From Histidinibacterium lentulum (GTDB lineage: Bacteria > Pseudomonadota > Alphaproteobacteria > Rhodobacterales > Rhodobacteraceae): DNA of 64,000 bases. This document shows, in pieces, positions 7,794 through 63,502 of this stretch (positions are counted from its first letter, which is position 1; each line of letters opens with the position of its first letter). A program made the position numbers and the translations under genes. The notes beneath the pieces are model-generated. The model worked only from the letters and a program-made list of their open reading frames with translations, ran no database searches and was not told where the DNA came from. The stretch covers positions 62,001 through 126,000 of the forward strand of contig NZ_ML119084.1 of NCBI RefSeq assembly GCF_003789055.1. Reading direction: 5' to 3'.

Positions 7794-8426
7794 TCAGCGC
7801 TCGTCGGTGATCGGGTTGCTGTCGTCGTCGCGGGAGGGTGCGGGGCCGCGGGGATCCTCGTCGTCGTACCCGGCGCTGCCGATGTCGTCGAAGAGTTCCT
7901 GGATCTCGAACTCGGCCGCGGCTTCCTCTTCGGCGGCGAGGTCCTGGATCGTCCGGCCCTGGGCCTGAAGCTCCGCCTCCTCGGGGGAGCGGGCGACGTT
8001 GAGGGTGATGCGGGCATCGACCTCGGGATGCAGGTTCACGATGACCTCGTGCATCCCCAGTTCCTTGATCGGTGCGGCGAGGGCGACCTGCTTGCGGTCC
8101 ACCGTGAAGCCGCCAGCGGTCGCGGCTTCGGCCGCGTCACGGGTGGAGACCGAGCCGTAGAGCGCACCGCCGTCGGAGGCGGAGCGAATCACGACGAAGG
8201 TCTGGCCGTCGAGCTTCGCGGCAAAGGCCTCGGCCTCCTTGCGGGTCTCGAGGTTCTGGGCCTCGAGCTGGGCCTTCTGATCCTCGAACTTCGCCTTGTT
8301 GGCCTCGGTGGCGCGCAGCGCCTTGCCGAGCGGCAGAAGGTAGTTGCGGGCGTAGCCCGGCTTCACGCTGACGATCTCGCCCATCTGGCCGAGCTTGGCC
8401 ACGCGTTCCAGTAGAATGACGTCCAT
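7794..8426 (-). CDS. rplI: 50S ribosomal protein L9 with acidic C-terminal extension
   Basis: A 210-residue L9. The N-terminal domain [32 protein letters not shown] is the L9 signature, followed by the long connecting helix ([17 protein letters not shown]) and the C-terminal rRNA-binding domain ending near residue 150. About 60 extra residues follow, rich in Glu, Asp, Ser and Pro ([20 protein letters not shown]). E. coli L9 has 149 residues and lacks such a tail. Last gene of the rpsF-rpsR-rplI operon, 11 bp after rpsR. Confidence 0.97.
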
Positions 8427-8437
8427 CTGTCAGGCCC

Positions 8438-8665
8438 TCACTTCACCGCATAGGGCAGCAGCGCGAGGAACCGGGCGCGCTTGATCGCCTGGGCGAGCTT
8501 GCGCTGGTTCTTGGCGCCGACCGCGGTGATGCGGCTGGGAACGATCTTGCCGCGCTCGGAGATGTAGCGCTGCAGGGTGCGGGTGTCCTTGTAGTCGATC
8601 TTCGGGGCGCCGTCGCCGTCGAAGGGATCGCTCTTGCGGCGGCGGAAAAACGGTTTTGCGGCCAT
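8438..8665 (-). CDS. rpsR: 30S ribosomal protein S18
   Basis: A 75-residue S18, the usual size. It has the basic N-terminus [15 protein letters not shown], the core [27 protein letters not shown], and the conserved [22 protein letters not shown]18 binds next to S6 on the small-subunit platform, which fits its place directly after rpsF. Confidence 0.97.
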
Positions 8666-8685
8666 GTGTCCTTACTCCCTTTCGA

Positions 8686-9177: not shown

Positions 9178-9314
9178 GGGCCGGGAGCCGCCCGATCATG
9201 GCCCGGGCATGGCCCGTGGATGGCCCCGCATGCGCCCCGCTTTCGCCCTCTTGGACGGGAATCATCCCATTCGACAGGAATTGGATGGACCTTTCACACA
9301 AAGGCGACCGACCC

Positions 9315-9884
9315 ATGACGATGGCATTTCTCGACGGCCCCAGCGGCCTGGTGCGGGCCGCTCCGGCGGTGCGGGGAGACCGGGTGACCATCGACGAGAC
9401 GCTGTGGGGCTATGTCGTGCGCGCGGAGGCGCGGCATGCGGGCGCGGCCTGGCTTGCGCGGCGGCTGGCGTTCCTGGTGGCGTCGGCGGCGGTGGTTCTG
9501 ATCGGCTACATGTGGCTCCTGCCGGGCGCGGGCTCGCCGCTCGGAAAGGTGGGGGCGACGGGCCTTCTGACGGGCTTTGCCGGTCTGGCCCTCTGGCTTG
9601 CGGGGCGGGGCTTCGCGCCCGAGACCCATGTCGACCTGCGGCTGAAGGAGGTGCGCGAGGTGCTGCGCGACATCGACGGGCGGACGCGGCTCGTGGGACG
9701 CACGGCTTTCGCCGATATCGGCGGCGTGCACATCGATCGCTTCGGTCAGCCCGCGGGACAGGGACGGCTGGTGCTGCGCTGGCGCAATACCGGCCGGAAG
9801 ATGACCGTCGCCGCAGGGTCCGAAACCGTGCTGGCGGCGTTGCGCGACAGGATCGGGCGGGACCTGCTGCAGGGCAACGTCTGA
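9315..9884 (+). CDS. conserved two-helix membrane protein
   Basis: A 189-residue protein. Two hydrophobic segments lie at about residues 45-68 (LAFLVASAAVVLIGYMWLL) and 76-99 (GATGLLTGFAGLALWLAG), separated by a short turn, with soluble regions on both sides. The C-terminal half (ETHVDLRLKEVREVLRDIDG onward) looks like a small cytoplasmic beta-rich domain. The open frame begins at 9198, but MTMAFLDGPS at 9315 is the more likely start. It precedes fabD by 65 bp on the same strand. Family not recognised; probably a lineage-specific hypothetical protein. Confidence 0.65.
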   Translation: MTMAFLDGPSGLVRAAPAVRGDRVTIDETLWGYVVRAEARHAGAAWLARRLAFLVASAAVVLIGYMWLLPGAGSPLGKVGATGLLTGFAGLALWLAGRGFAPETHVDLRLKEVREVLRDIDGRTRLVGRTAFADIGGVHIDRFGQPAGQGRLVLRWRNTGRKMTVAAGSETVLAALRDRIGRDLLQGNV

Positions 9885-9949
9885 GCCGCTTTGTTGTGCC
9901 CGGCCACGGGGCGCGCTAGACCGGCGCGCAAGAAGGCAGAGGGGGCAGG

Positions 9950-10888
9950 ATGCGCGCATTCGTCTTTCCGGGCCAGGGGGCCCAGACCATCGGCATGGGG
10001 CGGGATCTCGCGGAGGCCTATCCGGCTGCGAGAGCGGTGTTCGAGGAGGTCGACGCGGCGCTGGGTGAGAAACTCTCCGCGTTGATCTGGGAGGGCGACA
10101 CAGAGACGCTGACGCTGACCGCCAATGCCCAGCCCGCGCTGATGGCCACGTCCATGGCGGCGATGGCGGCGCTGGAGGCGGAGGGTGTCGAGGTGACGGC
10201 GGCCGGCTTCGTGGCCGGGCATTCGCTGGGCGAGTATTCCGCGCTCTGTGCGGCGGGCGCGCTGACGCTGACCGACACGGCGCGGCTGCTGCGTATCCGT
10301 GGCCGTGCGATGCAGGAGGCGGTTCCGGTGGGCGAAGGGGCGATGGCCGCGCTGCTGGGACTCGATTTCGCGACCGTCGCCGAAGTGGCCGCTGAGGCGG
10401 CCGAGGGCGAGGTCTGCCAGGCTGCGAACGACAACGATCCGGGCCAGGTGGTGGTCTCGGGCCATGCCGGGGCCGTGGCGCGGGCGGTGGAGATCGCCAA
10501 GGCGAGAGGCGCGAAGCGGGCGGTGATGCTGCCGGTCTCCGCGCCGTTCCATTCGGCGCTGATGGCGCCCGCGGCGGAGGCCATGCGCACGGCGCTGGCG
10601 GAGGCCGACGTGCGGACGCCGAAGGTGCCGCTGGTGGCCAACGTGACGGCGGGCGCGGTGACCGACCCCGACGAGATCCGCGCGCGGCTGGTGGAGCAGG
10701 TCACGGGCTCGGTGCGCTGGCGCGAGAGCGTCCTGTTCATGAGAGCCGAGGGTGTCACGGACTTCTGGGAGATCGGCGCGGGCAAGGCGCTGTCGGGCAT
10801 GGTGCGGCGGATCGACCGGGACGCGGCGTGCCGCGCCCTCGGCTCTGCCGACGAGGTGAAGGCGGCGGCCGAGGCCGCGCGAGGCTGA
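9950..10888 (+). CDS. fabD: malonyl-CoA:acyl carrier protein transacylase
   Basis: A 312-residue FabD, which loads malonate onto ACP to supply the extender unit for fatty acid synthesis. It begins MRAFVFPGQGAQ and has the nucleophile motif GHSLGEYSAL, with the active Ser at residue 92. The arginine segment LLRIRGRAMQ and the catalytic His segment SAPFHSALM follow. Length and motifs are standard. fabG starts 11 bp downstream, so the two are cotranscribed. Confidence 0.97.
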   Translation: MRAFVFPGQGAQTIGMGRDLAEAYPAARAVFEEVDAALGEKLSALIWEGDTETLTLTANAQPALMATSMAAMAALEAEGVEVTAAGFVAGHSLGEYSALCAAGALTLTDTARLLRIRGRAMQEAVPVGEGAMAALLGLDFATVAEVAAEAAEGEVCQAANDNDPGQVVVSGHAGAVARAVEIAKARGAKRAVMLPVSAPFHSALMAPAAEAMRTALAEADVRTPKVPLVANVTAGAVTDPDEIRARLVEQVTGSVRWRESVLFMRAEGVTDFWEIGAGKALSGMVRRIDRDAACRALGSADEVKAAAEAARG

Positions 10889-55779: not shown

Positions 55780-56316
55780 TCAGGACTCGTCGTCTTCGGA
55801 GCTGTCGTCATCCGACATGCCGTCGCCGGAGGTGTCATCCCCGGACATGCCGTCTCCGGTCATCCCGGTGTCGGAGCCGTCGCCGGACATGGCGGCGTCG
55901 TCCATCATCTGGCGATCCGCCTCGTAGGACGCGAATTCGTCCGCGGTCAGATCACCGCTCTGGTCCGCGTCGTAGATGAGGAAGATGACGGCGGCCAGTT
56001 CATCGAGGCTCAGATCGCCGCTCTGGTCGGTGTCCGCGGTGGCGAAGTCCTGATCGCTCCAGGCGGGGTTGGCGGTGGCGCTCGAGGCGCGCGACATGCC
56101 GGAGGTGAATTCTTCCTCGCTCACAGTGCCGCTCATGTCCTGGTCCCAGTCGGACATGCCGCCGCCGGTGCCGTAGCCGGTCGTGAACTCCTCCTGGCTG
56201 ACGGCGGAATCCTGGTCGGTGTCCATGTCGCTCATGCCCTGGGCATGGGCCGGGGCTGCGGCGAGGGCGGCAAGCAGCGCGGTGGTGCCGGCGAGTTTCG
56301 CAAGGTCGTAGGTCAT
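55780..56316 (-). CDS. secreted EF-hand protein with acidic repeat tail
   Basis: A 178-residue protein. The Sec signal is about residues 1-26 (AHAQ cleavage). Four EF-hand-like loops follow: [39 protein letters not shown] and [13 protein letters not shown], with the expected Asp/Ser/Glu calcium positions. The C-terminal 40 residues repeat Gly-Met-Ser/Thr-Gly-Asp units and end in an acidic run. It probably binds calcium in the periplasm or outside the cell. GGAGAG supports the start at 56316 over 56334. A link to phosphonate use is not evident. Confidence 0.85.
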
Positions 56317-56535
56317 GTGTCTCTCCAAGAACAAGCATGCGCGGCAGCGGTGCCGCTTCGGGGAATGGCGCGGATGCCATGGTCTGTTCCGGGCCGGCGC
56401 GGCCTTCCCGAGAGGAATGCGCCAAACTCCGCCACCCCCCGGCCGTCCCCCGCCCCGCCAGGACGGTCCGGCGCCGGCGCCCCCGTCCCCTCCCCCGAGA
56501 CGGGCGGAAACCCGGAACTCACGAATTATTCCACC

Positions 56536-57971: not shown

Positions 57972-58400
57972 ATGATCCGCGCGGACTGGATTGGCCTCCT
58001 GGCCCGAAGCATACCCGAGGCGCTCGAGGCCCGGCTCGACGGGCTGGAGCTGCCGCCCCATGACTGGCTGCGCGCGCCTGAGACCGGAACGGTGATGGTG
58101 CGCGGCCGCACGGGCGGCACCGGCGCGCCGTTCAACCTCGGCGAGGTCACCGCCACGCGCTGCACGCTGAGGCTCGGGGACGGGACCGAGGGCCATGCCT
58201 TCGTGCAGGGGCGCGACGCGGCCCATGCGACGCGCGCGGCGCTGGTGGATGCGCTGATGCAGGGTCCCCGCGCCGCCGAGATGCGCGCAGGCGTGCTGGA
58301 CCCGCTCGCCGCCGAGGAGGCCGCTCGCCGGGCCGAACGCGCGGGCAAGGCCGAGGCCACGCGGGTGGAGTTCGAGACCATGGTGAGGGGGGACGACTGA
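57972..58400 (+). CDS. phnG: C-P lyase subunit PhnG
   Basis: A 142-residue PhnG (E. coli 150), part of the PhnGHIJ core complex that attaches phosphonate to ribose and breaks the C-P bond. It starts MIRADWIGLLARSIPEAL and has the typical PETGTVMVRGRTGGTGAPFNLGEVT and GHAFVQGRDAAHATRAALVDALMQ. No Shine-Dalgarno sequence precedes the ATG. It overlaps phnH by one base. Confidence 0.95.
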   Translation: MIRADWIGLLARSIPEALEARLDGLELPPHDWLRAPETGTVMVRGRTGGTGAPFNLGEVTATRCTLRLGDGTEGHAFVQGRDAAHATRAALVDALMQGPRAAEMRAGVLDPLAAEEAARRAERAGKAEATRVEFETMVRGDD

Positions 58401-58948
58401 TGCGCGCGCCGGGCTTCGCCGATCCGCCCCGAGACAGCGCCCGCGTCTTTCGCGCGGCGATGGAGGCCATGGCCCGCCCCGGCACGGCATATGCGGTGAC
58501 AGGGCCGGAGGTACCCGGCCTTTCGCCCGCCGCGGCGGTGCTGCTCCTGACGCTGACGGACCCGTCGACGCCGGTCTACCTCGGCCGAGCGGCCGCCCGC
58601 GCACGCGACTGGCTGACATTCCACACCGGCGCGCCCGCGGCGGAAAAGAGCGCCGCCATGTTCGCCCTGGGCGCCTGGGAGGACCTCGCCCCGCTCGACC
58701 CCTACCCCGTCGGGACGCCCGATTACCCCGACCGCTCCGCCACGCTGATCGTCGAGACGTCGGCCCTGAGAGGCGGCGACGCGCGGCTCACCGGCCCGGG
58801 AATCGAGACGGAGGCGCGGTTGCCCCTGCCCGACCGCGCGGCCTTCGCCCGGAACGCCGGGCTCTATCCGCTGGGTCTCGACTTCTACTTCACCTGCGGC
58901 AGCGCCCTTGCGGCCCTGCCCCGCTCCACCGCCGTGGAGGCGCGCTGA
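58400..58948 (+). CDS. phnH: C-P lyase subunit PhnH
   Basis: A 182-residue PhnH (E. coli 194). It has SARVFRAAMEAMARPGTAY, LLLTLTDPSTPVYLG, WLTFHTGAP and the C-terminal PLGLDFYFTCGSALAALPRSTAVE, all characteristic. It forms part of the PhnGHIJ core. Both ends overlap neighbours by a single base, giving tight coupling. Confidence 0.95.
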   Translation: MRAPGFADPPRDSARVFRAAMEAMARPGTAYAVTGPEVPGLSPAAAVLLLTLTDPSTPVYLGRAAARARDWLTFHTGAPAAEKSAAMFALGAWEDLAPLDPYPVGTPDYPDRSATLIVETSALRGGDARLTGPGIETEARLPLPDRAAFARNAGLYPLGLDFYFTCGSALAALPRSTAVEAR

Positions 58949-60030
58949 TGTACGTGGCGGCCAAGGGCGGGGAGCAGGCGATCGCGGCGGCCCACGCCTG
59001 GCTCGCCGAGGAACGGCGCGGCGACCGGCGCGACCCTGCCCTGTCTCTTCGCCAGATCGCCTCGCAACTGGCGCTCGCCACGGCGCGGGTGATGGCCGAA
59101 GGCTCTCTCTACGACGAGGCTCTGGCGGCGCTGGCGGTGCAGCAGTCGCGCGGCGATCTGGTCGAGGCGGTGTTCCTCCTGCGCGCCTACCGCACCACGC
59201 TGCCCCGCCTCGCCGCCTCGCGGCCGCTGGACACCGGGCGCATGGTCGTGGAGCGGCGGGTGTCGGCCACCTTCAAGGACATCCCCGGCGGGCAGATCCT
59301 GGGACCCACCTTCGACTATACACACCGCCTGCTCGATTTCGCCCTCGAGGCAGGGGACGAGGCCGCCGCCGCCCGCATCGCCGCCGCCCCCGCGCCGACG
59401 CGCCCCCGGGTGTCCGAGGTGCTGGGCCGCGAGGGCCTCCTGCGGGACGAGCCGCGCCAAAACGCCGAGCCGACCGACCTCACGCGGACCCCGCTGGAGC
59501 TGCCCGCGGACCGGCCCCTGCGCCTTCAGGCGCTGGCGCGGGCCGACGAGGGCTTCCTGCTGAGCCTCGCCTATTCGACCCAGCGCGGCTACGGTCGCAC
59601 CCATGCGTTCGTGGGCGAACTCCGGATCGGCGCGGTGGAGGTGGAGGTGGAGATCCCGGAGCTGGGCCTGTCCGTCGCCTTCGCCGAGATTGTCGTGACC
59701 GAATGCGAGACCGTGAACCAGTTCACCGGATCGCGGCGCGAGCCGCCGCAGTTCACCCGGGGCTACGGGCTGACGCTGGGCCGCTGCGAGAGAAAGGCGA
59801 TTTCCATGTCGCTGGTGGACCGCGCGCTGCAATGGCGCGAGCTGGGCGAGGATTATGCGGGCGCCCCCGCCCAGGACGAGGAATTCGTGCTCATGCATTG
59901 CGACAACGTGCAGGCGACCGGCTTTCTCGAGCACATCAAGCTGCCGCATTACGTCGACTTCCAGGCCGAGCTGGAGCTGATCCGCCGCCTGCGCCGCGAG
60001 GCGGGCGGCGCGGGGGAGGCCGCCGAATGA
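58948..60030 (+). CDS. phnI: C-P lyase subunit PhnI
   Basis: A 360-residue PhnI (E. coli 354), the nucleosidase that, with PhnG, H and L, swaps the adenine of ATP for phosphonate. Conserved segments: MYVAAKGGEQAIAAAHAWLAEERRGD, YNEALAALA-like YDEALAALAVQQSRGDLVEAVFLLRAYR, QLALATARVMAEGSLYDEAL and FVLMHCDNVQATGFLEHIKLPHYVDFQAEL. It overlaps the phnJ start by 4 nt. Confidence 0.96.
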   Translation: MYVAAKGGEQAIAAAHAWLAEERRGDRRDPALSLRQIASQLALATARVMAEGSLYDEALAALAVQQSRGDLVEAVFLLRAYRTTLPRLAASRPLDTGRMVVERRVSATFKDIPGGQILGPTFDYTHRLLDFALEAGDEAAAARIAAAPAPTRPRVSEVLGREGLLRDEPRQNAEPTDLTRTPLELPADRPLRLQALARADEGFLLSLAYSTQRGYGRTHAFVGELRIGAVEVEVEIPELGLSVAFAEIVVTECETVNQFTGSRREPPQFTRGYGLTLGRCERKAISMSLVDRALQWRELGEDYAGAPAQDEEFVLMHCDNVQATGFLEHIKLPHYVDFQAELELIRRLRREAGGAGEAAE

Positions 60031-60857
60031 GCGGCTACAATTTCGCCTATCTCGACGAGCCCACGAAGAAGATGATCCGCCGCGCGATCCTCAAGGGCCT
60101 TGCGATCCCCGGCTACCAGGTGCCCTTCGCCAGCCGCGAGATGCCCATGCCCTATGGCTGGGGCACGGGCGGCGTGCAGGTCACCGCCGCCGTCCTGACG
60201 CCCGAGGACCGGCTGAAGGTCATCGACCAGGGCGCCGACGACACCACCAACGCGGTCTCGATCCGGTCGTTCTTCCGCAAAGTGGCCGGCGTCGCCACCA
60301 CCACGCGGACACGGGAGGCGACGATCATCCAGACACGCCACCGCATCCCCGAGACGCCCCTGACAGAGGGCCAGATCCTCGTCTACCAGGTGCCGATCCC
60401 CGAGCCGTTGCGGTTCCTTGAGCCGCGCGAGACCGAGACCCGGCGGATGCACGCGCTCGAAGAGTACGGGCTGATGCACGTCAAGCTCTACGAGGACATC
60501 GCGCGGCACGGCGCCATCGCGACCTCCTATGCCTATCCCGCGCTGGTGAACGGACGCCATGTCTTCGATCCCTCGCCGATCCCGCGCTTCGACAACCCGA
60601 AGCTCGAAAGCCCCGCGATCCAGCTCTTCGGCGCGGGGCGGGAACAGCGCATCTACGCGCTGCCGCCCTACACCCGCGTGCAGAGCCTCGATTTCGACGA
60701 TCACCCCTTCGAGGCGTCGAAGGCGGAGGGCGCCTGCGCGCTCTGCGGAGCGACCGAGAGCTACCTCGACGAGATCGTGGCCGACGACCGGGGCACCCGG
60801 CGGTTCCAGTGTTCCGACACGGATTTCTGCGCCGAACGGCGGGCGGGGGCCGCATGA
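60027..60857 (+). CDS. phnJ: C-P lyase catalytic subunit PhnJ
   Basis: A 276-residue radical SAM C-P lyase. The cluster cysteines Cys237, Cys240 and Cys262, and Cys268, keep the spacing of E. coli Cys241/244/266 and the radical-site Cys272 (segments CALCGATESYL and FQCSDTDFC). The glycyl-radical Gly29 lies in AIPGYQVPF (E. coli Gly32). The body, for example YGWGTGGVQVTAAV and NAVSIRSFFRKVAGV, is strongly conserved. It cuts the C-P bond to release alkane plus 5-phosphoribosyl 1,2-cyclic phosphate. The next gene is an unexpected alpha/beta hydrolase. Confidence 0.97.
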   Translation: MSGYNFAYLDEPTKKMIRRAILKGLAIPGYQVPFASREMPMPYGWGTGGVQVTAAVLTPEDRLKVIDQGADDTTNAVSIRSFFRKVAGVATTTRTREATIIQTRHRIPETPLTEGQILVYQVPIPEPLRFLEPRETETRRMHALEEYGLMHVKLYEDIARHGAIATSYAYPALVNGRHVFDPSPIPRFDNPKLESPAIQLFGAGREQRIYALPPYTRVQSLDFDDHPFEASKAEGACALCGATESYLDEIVADDRGTRRFQCSDTDFCAERRAGAA

Positions 60858-61525
60858 GCGCTGTCGTCTGCCTGCATGGTGCGGCGCTGGCTTCGCTCCG
60901 GTGGGGTCCGTTCGACGAGGCGCTCTGGCCGGTCCTGCCGGGCCATCTCGACGCGCCACGCACCACACCCAGCGTCGCGGCCTATGCGGACGCGATCCTG
61001 CCCGGGCTTCCGGACCGGGTCGCGCTCGCCGGCCATTCGCTGGGCGGCATGGTGGCGCTCGTCCTCGCCGCGCGACTGAGGGAGCGGTGCCGCGCGCTGA
61101 TCCTGCTCGATACCCCGCTGAGCTTGCCGCGCTGGCTCCTGCCGCGCGCGGGCACGCGCACGGTTCCGGTCCTCGTGCGGGTGCCCGGACCCCCGATCCT
61201 CGCCCGCATCGTCGCGCACAGGACAGAAAACCGGGAGATGCGCCCGGCCGTGGTCGCCTCGATTTCCGCGACCCGGCCCGCGGGACTGTCGGATGCGCTC
61301 ATCGCCTGCACCCGCTTCGACGGCAGGCCGCTTCTGAACCGGCTGACCGCGCCCGTGCTCTGCCTTCTAGGGCGACGGAGCCTTCTGACCGGGCGACGGG
61401 AGACGGAGGCCTTCGGACGGATCGGGGCCGAGACGCGAACCTTCGACACCGGCCACATGCTGCCCTTCGATGCCCCGGACGAGGTAAACCCCCTCATGCG
61501 CGCCTTCCTGGAGAGCCACCCATGA
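60854..61525 (+). CDS. alpha/beta hydrolase inserted in the C-P lyase operon
   Basis: A 223-residue alpha/beta-hydrolase-fold protein. The nucleophile elbow is ALAGHSLGGMVAL (Ser near residue 71), a His stands in FDTGHMLPFDAP near the C-terminus, and the N-terminal LHGAALASLRWGPF is oxyanion-like. The usual acid in the strand before the His region reads GRRSLLTG, so the triad Asp is uncertain. It overlaps phnJ and phnK by 4 nt each, so it is translated as part of the operon. No E. coli phn counterpart exists. A role such as ester hydrolysis of phosphonate substrates or products is inference. Confidence 0.88.
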   Translation: MSAVVCLHGAALASLRWGPFDEALWPVLPGHLDAPRTTPSVAAYADAILPGLPDRVALAGHSLGGMVALVLAARLRERCRALILLDTPLSLPRWLLPRAGTRTVPVLVRVPGPPILARIVAHRTENREMRPAVVASISATRPAGLSDALIACTRFDGRPLLNRLTAPVLCLLGRRSLLTGRRETEAFGRIGAETRTFDTGHMLPFDAPDEVNPLMRAFLESHP

Positions 61526-62277
61526 GCCCGCTCCTGTCGGTCCGTGGCCTCACCCGGCGCTACGGCGCCCGCATCGGCTGCGAGGCCGTGGACCTCGACC
61601 TCTGGCCCGGCGAGGTGCTGGGCATCGTCGGCGAAAGCGGGTCGGGCAAGTCCACGCTGCTGGCCTGCCTCGCCGGGCATCTCGCGGCGGACGAAGGCCG
61701 CGTGCTCTATGACGGCCGCGACGTGCTGACCCTGCCGGAGCCGGAGCGGCGCCGGCTGATGCGCGGCGACTGGGCCTTCGTCCACCAGCACGCCCGCGAC
61801 GGGCTGCGGATGAACGTCAGCGCGGGCGGCAACGTGGGCGAAAGGCTCATGGGCCGGGGGGTGCGCCATTACGGAAAGATCCGCGCCGAGGCCGCGGCCT
61901 GGCTCGCGAAGGTGGAGATCGACCCCGCCCGGTTAGACGAGCGGCCCAGCGCCTTTTCGGGGGGCATGCAACAGCGCCTCCAGATCGCGCGCGGGCTGGT
62001 CACGCAGCCGCGGATCGTGCTGATGGACGAGCCCACGGGCGGGCTCGACGTCAGCGTGCAGGCGCGGCTTCTGGACCTTCTGCGCGGGCTCGTGCGGGAA
62101 ATGGGTCTCGCCGTGGTGCTCGTCACCCATGACATCGGCGTGGTGCGGCTGCTGGCGGACCGGCTCATGGTGATGCGTCATGGCCGGGTGGTGGAGGCAG
62201 GCCTGACGGACAGGGTGCTGGACGATCCGCAGGCGCCCTATACCCAGCTTCTCGTCAGCTCGGTGCTGCCCGCGTGA
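61522..62277 (+). CDS. phnK: C-P lyase ATPase-like subunit PhnK
   Basis: A 251-residue ABC-type ATPase without membrane partner (E. coli 252). Walker [39 protein letters not shown], signature [15 protein letters not shown], Walker [13 protein letters not shown] and H-loop VTHDIG. PhnK binds the PhnJ face of the core complex. Overlaps its neighbours by 4 nt. Confidence 0.96.
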
Positions 62278-62963
62278 CCGTTCTCGTCTCCCTCTCGGAT
62301 GTCGACAAGGACTTCACGCTCCACGCCCAAAACGGTGTCGTGATCCCCGTGCTCGAGCGGGCCGGGCTGGTGGTCCATGCGGGCGAATGCGTGGCGCTCA
62401 CCGGGGCGTCGGGCTCGGGCAAGTCCACGCTGCTGCGGCTGATCCAGGGCAATTACCTCGCCCGCGGCGGTCGGATCGAGGTGGCGGGGCTCGACCTCGT
62501 GACCGCCTCCCCGCGCGAGATCGCCGCCCTGCGCCGCGACCGGCTGGGTTATGTCAGCCAGTTCCTGCGCGTCGTCCCCCGGGTGCCCGCGCTCGAGGTG
62601 GTGGCCGAACCCCTGCGCGCCCTCGGCGTGCCCGCGGCGGAGGCACGGGCCCGCGCCGCCGCCCTGCTGACCCGGCTCAACCTGCCCGAACGGCTCTGGC
62701 CGCTCTCCCCGACCACCTTCTCGGGCGGCGAGCAGCAGCGCGTGAACATCGCGCGCGGCTTCGTGCATCCCTACCCGGTGCTCCTGCTGGACGAGCCGAC
62801 CGCCTCGCTCGACGCCGCCAACCGTACCGTGGTGATCGGTCTGATCCTGGAGGCCAAGGCGCGCGGCGCGGCCCTCGTGGGCATCTTCCACGATGCCGAG
62901 GCCCGCGTCGCCGTGGCCGACCGGGAGGTCGACGTCTCGGACTTCGCCCCGGAGGCGCCATGA
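62274..62963 (+). CDS. phnL: C-P lyase subunit PhnL
   Basis: A 229-residue ABC-type ATPase with GTG start (E. coli 226). Walker [26 protein letters not shown] in part, signature [15 protein letters not shown], Walker [15 protein letters not shown]-loop [33 protein letters not shown] is a PhnL feature. It works with PhnGHI in making the ribosylated phosphonate. Overlaps phnN by 4 nt. Confidence 0.96.
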
Positions 62964-63502
62964 CCGGCCGGCTGATCGCCGTCGTCGGCCCCTCGGGCGT
63001 GGGCAAGGACAGCCTGATCGCGGCCCTCTGCGTCGCACGTCCCGGCCTCGTCCGCGCGCGGCGGGTCATCACCCGCCCGCCCGCGGCCTCAGAGCCCTTC
63101 GAGGCGGTGAGCGAGGCCGAGTTCGAGCGGAGGCGCGCTGCGGGCGGCTTTGCCCTCCACTGGCGCGCCCACGGCCTCGGCTACGGCATCCCCCGGCAGA
63201 CGCTGGCGGAGGTCCGGGAGGGCGCCGAGGTGATCGCGAACCTGTCCCGCGGCGTGCTGACCGAGGCGGCCCGGGGCTATCCCGCCGTCCTCATCCTGTC
63301 GGTCACCGCCCCCGCCGAGGTGCTTGCCCACCGTCTGGGCGCGCGCGGCCGGGAGGCGGCCGCGGAGATCGCCCGCCGGCTCGCCCGGCCCGCACCGCCC
63401 CTTCCGCCCGGCGTCCGCGCCGCGCCGGTCGACAACGGGGGACGGATCGAGGACGCCGTCGCTCAGGCGCTCGCGGCCCTGTCGCCGGAGGCCGCATCAT
63501 GA
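62960..63502 (+). CDS. phnN: ribose 1,5-bisphosphate phosphokinase PhnN
   Basis: A 180-residue kinase (E. coli 185). P-loop [13 protein letters not shown], then [21 protein letters not shown] and [15 protein letters not shown], as in PhnN and guanylate kinases. It converts ribose 1,5-bisphosphate to PRPP, the last step of the pathway. Its 3' end overlaps the DUF1045 gene on the other strand by 40 bp. phnM is not found in this window. Confidence 0.94.

What the first reader, a model, noticed from the sequence alone, without database searches (positions are those of the whole stretch)
60854..61525. Alpha/beta hydrolase translationally coupled inside the C-P lyase operon
Between phnJ and phnK, genes that are adjacent in the classical operon, sits a 223-residue alpha/beta hydrolase (GHSLGG nucleophile, C-terminal His). 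It overlaps both neighbours by 4 nt. Such coupling implies a matched dose with the lyase complex and hence a role in the pathway, for example ester hydrolysis of phosphonate esters or handling of a released product. The triad acid position looks altered (GRRSLLTG).
Basis: partly seen in the sequence, partly recalled or inferred. Interest (0 to 1): 0.7.

Follow-up and report, generated by a model that had tools for sequence, protein, structure and literature searches.

The report
Esterase-like gene inside phosphonate-cleavage operon
A small, probably working esterase-type enzyme sits inside the gene set that bacteria use to break down phosphonates; related bacteria seem to have put such an enzyme in the same spot more than once, which hints at an optional helper role whose substrate is still unknown.

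Summary
A 223-aa alpha/beta hydrolase (ABH) lies between phnJ and phnK with 4-nt overlaps on both sides. Its triad acid is probably not lost: in the 26 rows I assigned to the family, the position after strand 7 is S/N/T and a D/E stands at the end of strand 6, the known 'group B' arrangement (PMC7034887, passages). The model is a confident minimal ABH (pLDDT 92.9), closest to carboxylesterases.

The placement recurs but is uncommon: 6 of 202 phnJ-bearing genomes of the family, each of another genus; 0 of 49 readable operons of other alphaproteobacterial families. The six ABHs are not one clade (AU p 1.3e-6), so several entries, replacements or exits at one joint are likely. Two further homologues stand beside or near phnM. 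The joint also holds other small enzymes.

'Matched dose with the lyase' is not supported: every phnG-phnN junction overlaps, and the ABH is far less conserved than PhnJ/PhnK. Best reading: an optional cytosolic serine esterase or lactonase for anionic substrates that extends phosphonate use. The substrate is untested.

The parts
60854..61525 (+). alpha/beta hydrolase, 223 aa, group B triad Ser62-Asp86-His201 (triad inferred)
60854..60857 (+). ATGA overlap of the phnJ stop and the ABH start
61522..61525 (+). ATGA overlap of the ABH stop and the phnK start
60027..60857 (+). phnJ (C-P lyase radical subunit)
   Evidence: Pfam PF06007 5e-142
61522..62277 (+). phnK (ABC-type ATPase of C-P lyase)
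   Evidence: TIGR02323 377.3 bits
62274..62963 (+). phnL (GTG start)
   Evidence: TIGR02324 311 bits; start read
62960..63502 (+). phnN (ribose 1,5-bisphosphokinase)
   Evidence: TIGR02322 166.5 bits for 62963-63502; ATG at 62960 read
58948..60030 (+). phnI
   Evidence: PF05861 1.9e-156
58400..58948 (+). phnH
   Evidence: PF05845; TIGR03292
57930..58400 (+). phnG (start codon uncertain)
   Evidence: PF06754; TIGR03293
63463..64000 (-). DUF1045 / 2H-phosphoesterase-like gene (part, runs off the window), candidate PhnP replacement
   Evidence: PF06299 2.9e-39; 2_5_RNA_ligase2 4.6e-4, below that model's cut-off; role as proposed in passages of PMC3840354 and PMC10574752; that DUF1045 is the 'RcsF' of those papers is my inference

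Best explanation
An optional accessory enzyme of the C-P lyase pathway: a cytosolic serine hydrolase with a group B triad (Ser62 nucleophile, His201 base, Asp86 acid at the end of beta6) and a short, basic helical cap. It most likely hydrolyses a carboxyl ester, thioester or lactone bond in a small anionic molecule tied to phosphonate use. For example it could remove an acyl or alkyl mask from an imported phosphonate so that PhnI can accept it, or open an ester made from a released product. It is made together with the lyase because it has been slotted into a permissive joint between phnJ and phnK, not because it is a subunit. Shown: fold class, conserved residues, recurrent placement, non-single clade, copies at or near phnM. 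Inferred: catalytic activity, acid role of Asp86, cytosolic location, anionic substrate, co-expression. Not shown: the substrate.
For: Same joint in 6 genera with Ser, His and beta6 acid kept in 6 of 6 although identity is only 29-50%. These six are rejected as one clade (AU p 1.3e-6), and starred branches force at least 3 changes of the label, so the enzyme class seems to have entered or been replaced there more than once. Of the 11 homologues outside the joint, one directly precedes phnM (Shimia ponticola, 30 nt between the ORFs; phnM by NF011990) and one lies 1.8 kb from phnM with DUF1045 between (Rhodobacteraceae MAG). Chance of two such cases about 5e-4 under an assumed 0.3% per locus, judged after seeing them. 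Model pLDDT 92.9, pTM 0.92; best PDB folds are carboxylesterases, a feruloyl esterase, PcaD lactonase and BioH. Beta7 acid absent and beta6 acid present in 26 of 26 family rows, against beta7 Asp in 74 of 86 wider ABHs; of those 86, the 10 without any beta7 acid have a beta6 acid in 10 of 10, which fits one acid standing in for the other. Cap net charge mean +6.2 in 26 family rows against +1.0 in 84 wider rows and +2.6 in 20 alphaproteobacterial ones (p 3.5e-4 for the last; rows are not independent). GC3 of the gene is within 0.06 of its neighbours in all six operons.
Against: In 196 of 202 phnJ-bearing genomes no homologue was found at this place, and the phnJ-bearing congener G396 has none. 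9 of the 17 homologues at E<=1e-10 have no phn gene in the stretches fetched around them (about 10 kb each side or to the contig end), including the 47%-identical one of G366, a genome without a phnJ match. 5 of the 16 genomes with a homologue have no phnJ match, among them G125 with the phnM-near copy (read). The basic cap is no stronger in phn-linked than in other members (8 against 7 rows, p 0.63). The joint also accepts unrelated small genes, so position alone may say little about chemistry. 2 of the 17 homologues (L021, L023) lack the group B pattern. No substrate evidence.
Confidence: 0.5

Rival explanations
1. Hitch-hiker in a phosphate-starvation operon: the phnJ-phnK joint is simply a permissive place in a regulated operon, and the hydrolase serves a general task under phosphate starvation (for example lipid or ester turnover) without acting on any phosphonate or pathway intermediate.
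For: 15 of 153 opened operons carry a gene at this joint, and the genes are of five unrelated kinds; 9 of 17 homologues have no phn gene nearby.
Against: ABH is the commonest kind at the joint (6 of 15 operons; but five of those six loci were fetched because they carried it) and also turns up beside or near phnM twice, which a merely permissive joint does not explain.
Confidence: 0.27
2. Neutral or selfish leftover: gene inserted without benefit and not yet lost.
For: Sparse distribution (6 of 202) and absence from the phnJ-bearing congener G396.
Against: Catalytic residues kept in 6 of 6 in spite of 29-50% identity; GC3 like its neighbours; the same enzyme class at the same joint from more than one clade.
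Confidence: 0.1
3. Non-catalytic partner or subunit of the C-P lyase core complex, made in matched amounts.
For: Tight overlaps with phnJ and phnK in the window and mostly in the other five operons (4 nt with phnJ in 5 of 6, with phnK in 4 of 6); PhnK and PhnL bind the PhnGHIJ core (PMC10574752, passages).
Against: Pairwise identity 29-50% against 78-86% for PhnJ and 71-88% for PhnK across the same six operons; not one clade; not found in 196 of 202 phnJ-bearing genomes at this place; triad residues kept.
Confidence: 0.05
4. Enzyme for the product end of the pathway (for example replacing PhnP, or acting on a ribosyl intermediate).
For: Homologues beside or near phnM, whose product acts on the ribosyl-phosphonate triphosphate (step as in PMC10574752, passages); basic cap.
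Against: A serine ABH is not a known phosphodiesterase (recalled). The window operon already has a DUF1045 gene, the likely PhnP analogue, and phnN. The ABH does not track DUF1045: by coordinates, three of the six ABH operons (window, G063, G302) have DUF1045 between phnN and phnM and three (G313, G139, G342) do not.
Confidence: 0.08

Closest known systems
Thermogutta terrifontis esterase (PDB 4uhc, 4uhh)
   Same: Best solved relative by sequence (1.4e-11; profile 6e-27) and by fold (TMq 0.84); ABH
   Different: Has the canonical acid after beta7 (GQFD) where this protein has GRRS (alignment); longer chain (273-278 residues); 26% identity
PcaD 3-oxoadipate enol-lactonase and BioH pimeloyl-ACP methyl esterase
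   Same: Fold and overall size class; act on carboxyl ester or lactone of acidic substrates (recalled)
   Different: Scores far below the curated cut-offs (BioH 54.9 of 206.95 bits; PcaD 41.7 of 255.85)
Group B ABHs (acid at the end of beta6), e.g. zearalenone lactonases ZenA and ZHD101
   Same: Acid after beta6 instead of beta7 (PMC7034887 and PMC10913051, passages read)
   Different: Sequences were not compared here; substrates unrelated as far as known
PhnO and other optional accessory genes of phn operons
   Same: Works like: optional gene inside a C-P lyase operon that widens or detoxifies substrates (PMC10574752, passages)
   Different: PhnO is an N-acetyltransferase; this is a hydrolase at another place
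Extra genes in marine Rhodobacterales C-P lyase clusters (Martinez 2013, PMC3840354)
   Same: Same kind of operon with embedded extra genes (GNAT, hexapeptide transferase, second phnM, second phnE, RcsF)
   Different: No ABH is named in the 12 passages read

Membership tests
alpha/beta hydrolase superfamily (Pfam Abhydrolase_6) | profile match above curated cut-off | tested here: met
   52.7 bits against 26.3
alpha/beta hydrolase superfamily (Pfam Abhydrolase_6) | nucleophile elbow GxSxG after beta5 and His near the C-terminus | tested here: met
   Ser62 and His201 invariant in 15 of 15; helix starts right after Ser62 in the model
group B ABH (acid at end of beta6) | no acid after beta7, acidic residue at the end of beta6 | tested here: met
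   26 of 26 rows assigned to the family from the tree; strand 79-85 ends just before D86 in the model. L021 and L023, two of the weakest homologues, do not show it
group B ABH (acid at end of beta6) | hydrogen bond of that acid to the catalytic His | not testable with these tools
BioH / PcaD equivalogs | score above NCBIfam cut-off | tested here: not met
   54.9 of 206.95 and 41.7 of 255.85 bits
C-P lyase core component | present in most C-P lyase operons and conserved like PhnJ | tested here: not met
   6 of 202 phnJ genomes; 29-50% identity against 78-86%
optional phn accessory gene | recurrent location in phn operons of different genera | tested here: met
   6 genera at the joint; one beside and one near phnM
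optional phn accessory gene | needed for growth on some phosphonate | not testable with these tools
   needs a mutant

The most novel reading that the evidence does not exclude
The phnJ-phnK joint of Rhodobacteraceae C-P lyase operons is an exchange site for one-gene accessory functions (ABH, histidine phosphatase, VOC, GNAT, NIPSNAP). A group B serine hydrolase with a basic cap has been recruited there several times to unmask ester-bearing phosphonates, a substrate class that no phn gene in the papers I saw is assigned to.
Probability: 0.28. Interest if true: 0.62.

Novelty: new variant of a known kind. Interest (0 to 1): 0.45.

Why it matters
C-P lyase is a route to methane in oxygenated seawater (abstracts of PMC3840354 and PMC5649143). 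Which phosphonates a strain can use is only partly explained by the core genes. A recurrently recruited hydrolase at a fixed joint is a concrete, testable candidate for a substrate-range determinant, and the joint itself points to more such genes.

Tried and rejected
Considered and rejected: chance ORF (conserved homologues at the same joint); dead enzyme (acid probably moved to beta6); recent foreign insert (GC3 like its neighbours); core subunit; PhnP substitute (DUF1045 present, no tracking). Tried without result: charge difference between phn-linked and other members (p 0.63); mutual exclusion of ABH with the phnI-phnJ HAD gene (0 of 6 ABH operons have it against 36 of 147 others: too few to say); plasmid search (2 Phaeobacter records, no phn genes listed around the one opened); three same-genus searches, each of which held only one genome; 21 class-wide ABH loci with 1.5-kb flanks gave no phnG-L relative and only one weak phnM-like match 1.3 kb from the ABH of L253.

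Limits: the genome search scores only the best candidates of a loose first look (at most 7 per genome), so divergent homologues can be missed. The family sample is 394 genomes drawn from a larger group. Of 202 phnJ-bearing genomes in the family sample, the joint was opened in 152 (plus G396, 153 loci); 50 were not opened. Among the opened, L037-L041 were fetched because they carried the ABH, so frequencies of joint contents are biased upwards for the ABH. Of 57 phnJ-bearing genomes of other families, 50 were fetched and 49 reach phnK. The tree used 15 of the 17 rows (L021 and L023 left out) and 15 of the 80 genome-contig loci. The 26 family rows are those 15 plus 11 of the latter, picked by me from the tree; L165, left in the wider set, also looks like family, and two of 86 wider rows were dropped by cap length. 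The AU test cannot tell repeated entry from repeated exit. The 0.3% chance figure is my assumption. That the unnamed family f1 is Rhodobacteraceae is inferred from contigs of equal length in named records (G230 = L153, G125 = L161). The name PhnM for NF011990 is recalled; the tool shows it as PRK15446.2-6.

Full report
What is there. Window 60854-61525 (+) is a complete 223-aa ORF with ATGA overlaps to phnJ upstream and phnK downstream. The neighbours are clear: phnG, phnH, phnI, phnJ, [ABH], phnK, phnL, phnN by Pfam/NCBIfam, then a DUF1045 gene on the minus strand that runs off the window, with phnM just past the window end at G000:C4:126179-127318. The seven junctions from phnG to phnN overlap by 1 or 4 nt, so tight coupling is a habit of this operon and says little about this gene in particular.

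The protein. It matches Abhydrolase_6 at 1.2e-13, falls far below the cut-offs of the named ABH equivalogs it matches (BioH, PcaD and others), and its nearest solved relatives are esterases. An AlphaFold2 model from 15 homologues has mean pLDDT 92.9 and pTM 0.92; Foldseek puts Thermogutta esterase, a feruloyl esterase, PcaD lactonase and BioH on top. It has no N-terminal extension before the first strand (residues 3-7), so it is probably cytosolic (inference).

The altered triad. This is a family trait. In 26 of 26 rows that I assigned to the family the position after beta7 is S, N or T, and residue 86, at the end of beta6, is Asp (5) or Glu (21). In 86 wider ABHs with aligned Ser and His, beta7 is Asp in 74 (and Glu in 2) and beta6 is acidic in 36. 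The 10 wider rows without a beta7 acid have a beta6 acid in 10 of 10. Two of the 17 homologues, L021 and L023, do not show the pattern and were left out of the 26. Acid at the end of beta6 is the known group B arrangement (PMC7034887, passages), described as functionally equivalent and found in zearalenone lactonases (PMC10913051, passages). Activity through Ser62-Asp86-His201 is therefore expected, though not shown.

How often it occurs at this place. In 394 genomes of the same family, P0001 relatives at E<=1e-10 occur in 16 genomes at 17 places, and phnJ occurs in 202. Six of the 17 places are phnJ-ABH-phnK: the window, G313, G139, G342, G063 and G302, each of a different genus. The other nine have no phn gene in the stretch fetched. 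Five of the 16 genomes have no phnJ match. In the window's own genus, 2 of 5 genomes have phnJ, and the other one, G396, has phnJ directly followed by phnK. In 49 operons of other alphaproteobacterial families the phnJ-phnK gap is at most 203 nt (50 loci fetched of 57 phnJ genomes, one cut by the contig end).

One gain or several. On a 30-row maximum-likelihood tree the six joint ABHs need 5 changes, at least 3 of them forced by starred branches. Label clustering of the six is no better than shuffled (159 of 500 shuffles as low). Holding the six together is rejected (p-AU 1.3e-6), as is holding the eight phn-linked ones (9.6e-7) or five without G302 (1.5e-4). The G302 copy sits in a clade otherwise made of non-phn proteins. 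Repeated entry, in-place replacement, or repeated exit of copies are all possible; the tree is unrooted and cannot decide.

Core part or passenger. Across the six operons PhnJ pairs are 78-86% identical, PhnK 71-88%, the ABH 29-50% (15 pairs). That speaks against a subunit fitted to the complex. GC3 of the ABH is within 0.06 of that of its neighbours in all six, so these do not look like fresh arrivals. The overlap with phnJ is 4 nt in 5 of 6 and that with phnK 4 nt in 4 of 6; G063 has a NIPSNAP gene between ABH and phnK.

The joint itself. Of 153 opened operons in the family, 138 have a phnJ-phnK gap of 250 nt or less and 15 hold a gene: ABH 6 (one of them with NIPSNAP after it), histidine phosphatase 4, VOC/glyoxalase 2, GNAT 2, NIPSNAP alone 1 (Pfam names for representatives; five of the ABH loci were fetched because they had it). 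A HAD-family hydrolase sits between phnI and phnJ in 36 of 153. The joint is therefore an accepted place for small accessory genes, which tempers any inference from position alone.

Hints at the substrate. The cap region is basic: mean net charge +6.2 in 26 family rows against +1.0 in 84 wider rows and +2.6 in 20 alphaproteobacterial controls (p 3.5e-4 against the last; related rows, so only indicative). It is equally basic in phn-linked and other members (p 0.63). An anionic ester, thioester or lactone fits. Marine phosphonates do occur as esters on polysaccharides, but the authors who studied their use postulate alkaline-phosphatase-like enzymes for that P-O bond (PMC5649143, passages), and an ABH is not expected to cleave it (recalled).

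Literature. Six searches listed no paper that I saw to describe an ABH in a phn operon. The three papers that hold all four terms ('C-P lyase', 'beta hydrolase', 'phosphonate', 'gene cluster') mention the ABH in other contexts in the passages shown: beside a flavodoxin gene in PMC3610870, as a positively selected Devosia gene in PMC6981132, and as the cholinesterase superfamily in PMC7916636. I read only passages of PMC3840354, PMC5649143, PMC10574752, PMC9947105, PMC7034887, PMC10913051, PMC3610870, PMC6981132 and PMC7916636; a find in PMC8774927 returned nothing; the rest were seen in listings only. The library lacks most subscription journals, so this is weak evidence of absence.

Verdict. 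Real gene, real and recurrent association, altered triad explained as group B, strong form of the dose argument not borne out. Most likely an optional serine esterase or lactonase of phosphonate utilisation (0.5), with hitch-hiking as the main rival (0.27).

Noticed in passing
phnI-phnJ gap of 36 of 153 family operons, e.g. L150:2494-3087 (operon orientation): A HAD-superfamily hydrolase of about 200 aa is commonly inserted between phnI and phnJ; one operon (L132) has a histidine phosphatase there instead, which suggests interchangeable phosphatase roles.
   Followed up: partly
phnJ-phnK gap of L078, L108, L138, L323; L116, L126; L067, L321; L072, L040: The same joint holds histidine phosphatase, VOC, GNAT or NIPSNAP genes in other genera; L040 has ABH followed by NIPSNAP.
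   Followed up: partly
L154:5888-6472 and 7833-8684 (Roseobacter sp. MH60115): A relative of the joint-type histidine phosphatase (51% to L078) lies about 1.5 kb from a free-standing ABH of the same family, with no phn gene found within 8 kb. Unexplained.
   Followed up: no
L027:8026-9204 and 9235-9948 (Shimia ponticola): ABH-phnM pair away from the main phn operon, with an FAD-oxidoreductase-like gene and a TetR-like regulator nearby (names by eye).
   Followed up: partly
L040, L042, L054, L067, L071, L075, L088, L134, phnI-phnJ gap: DUF559-like (Vsr-like, named by eye) ORFs stand between phnI and phnJ in eight operons, including the congener G396, where repeated GC-rich stretches precede the ORF.
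   Followed up: no
L028:9025-9756 and 9753-10625: In G035, a genome without a phnJ match, the ABH overlaps an Amidohydro_2 gene by 4 nt (Pfam 1e-38), a different operon partner.
   Followed up: no
window 55780-56334 (-): EF-hand-like Asp-rich small protein (by eye) lies between phnE and the acyltransferase-like gene of the phn region.
   Followed up: no
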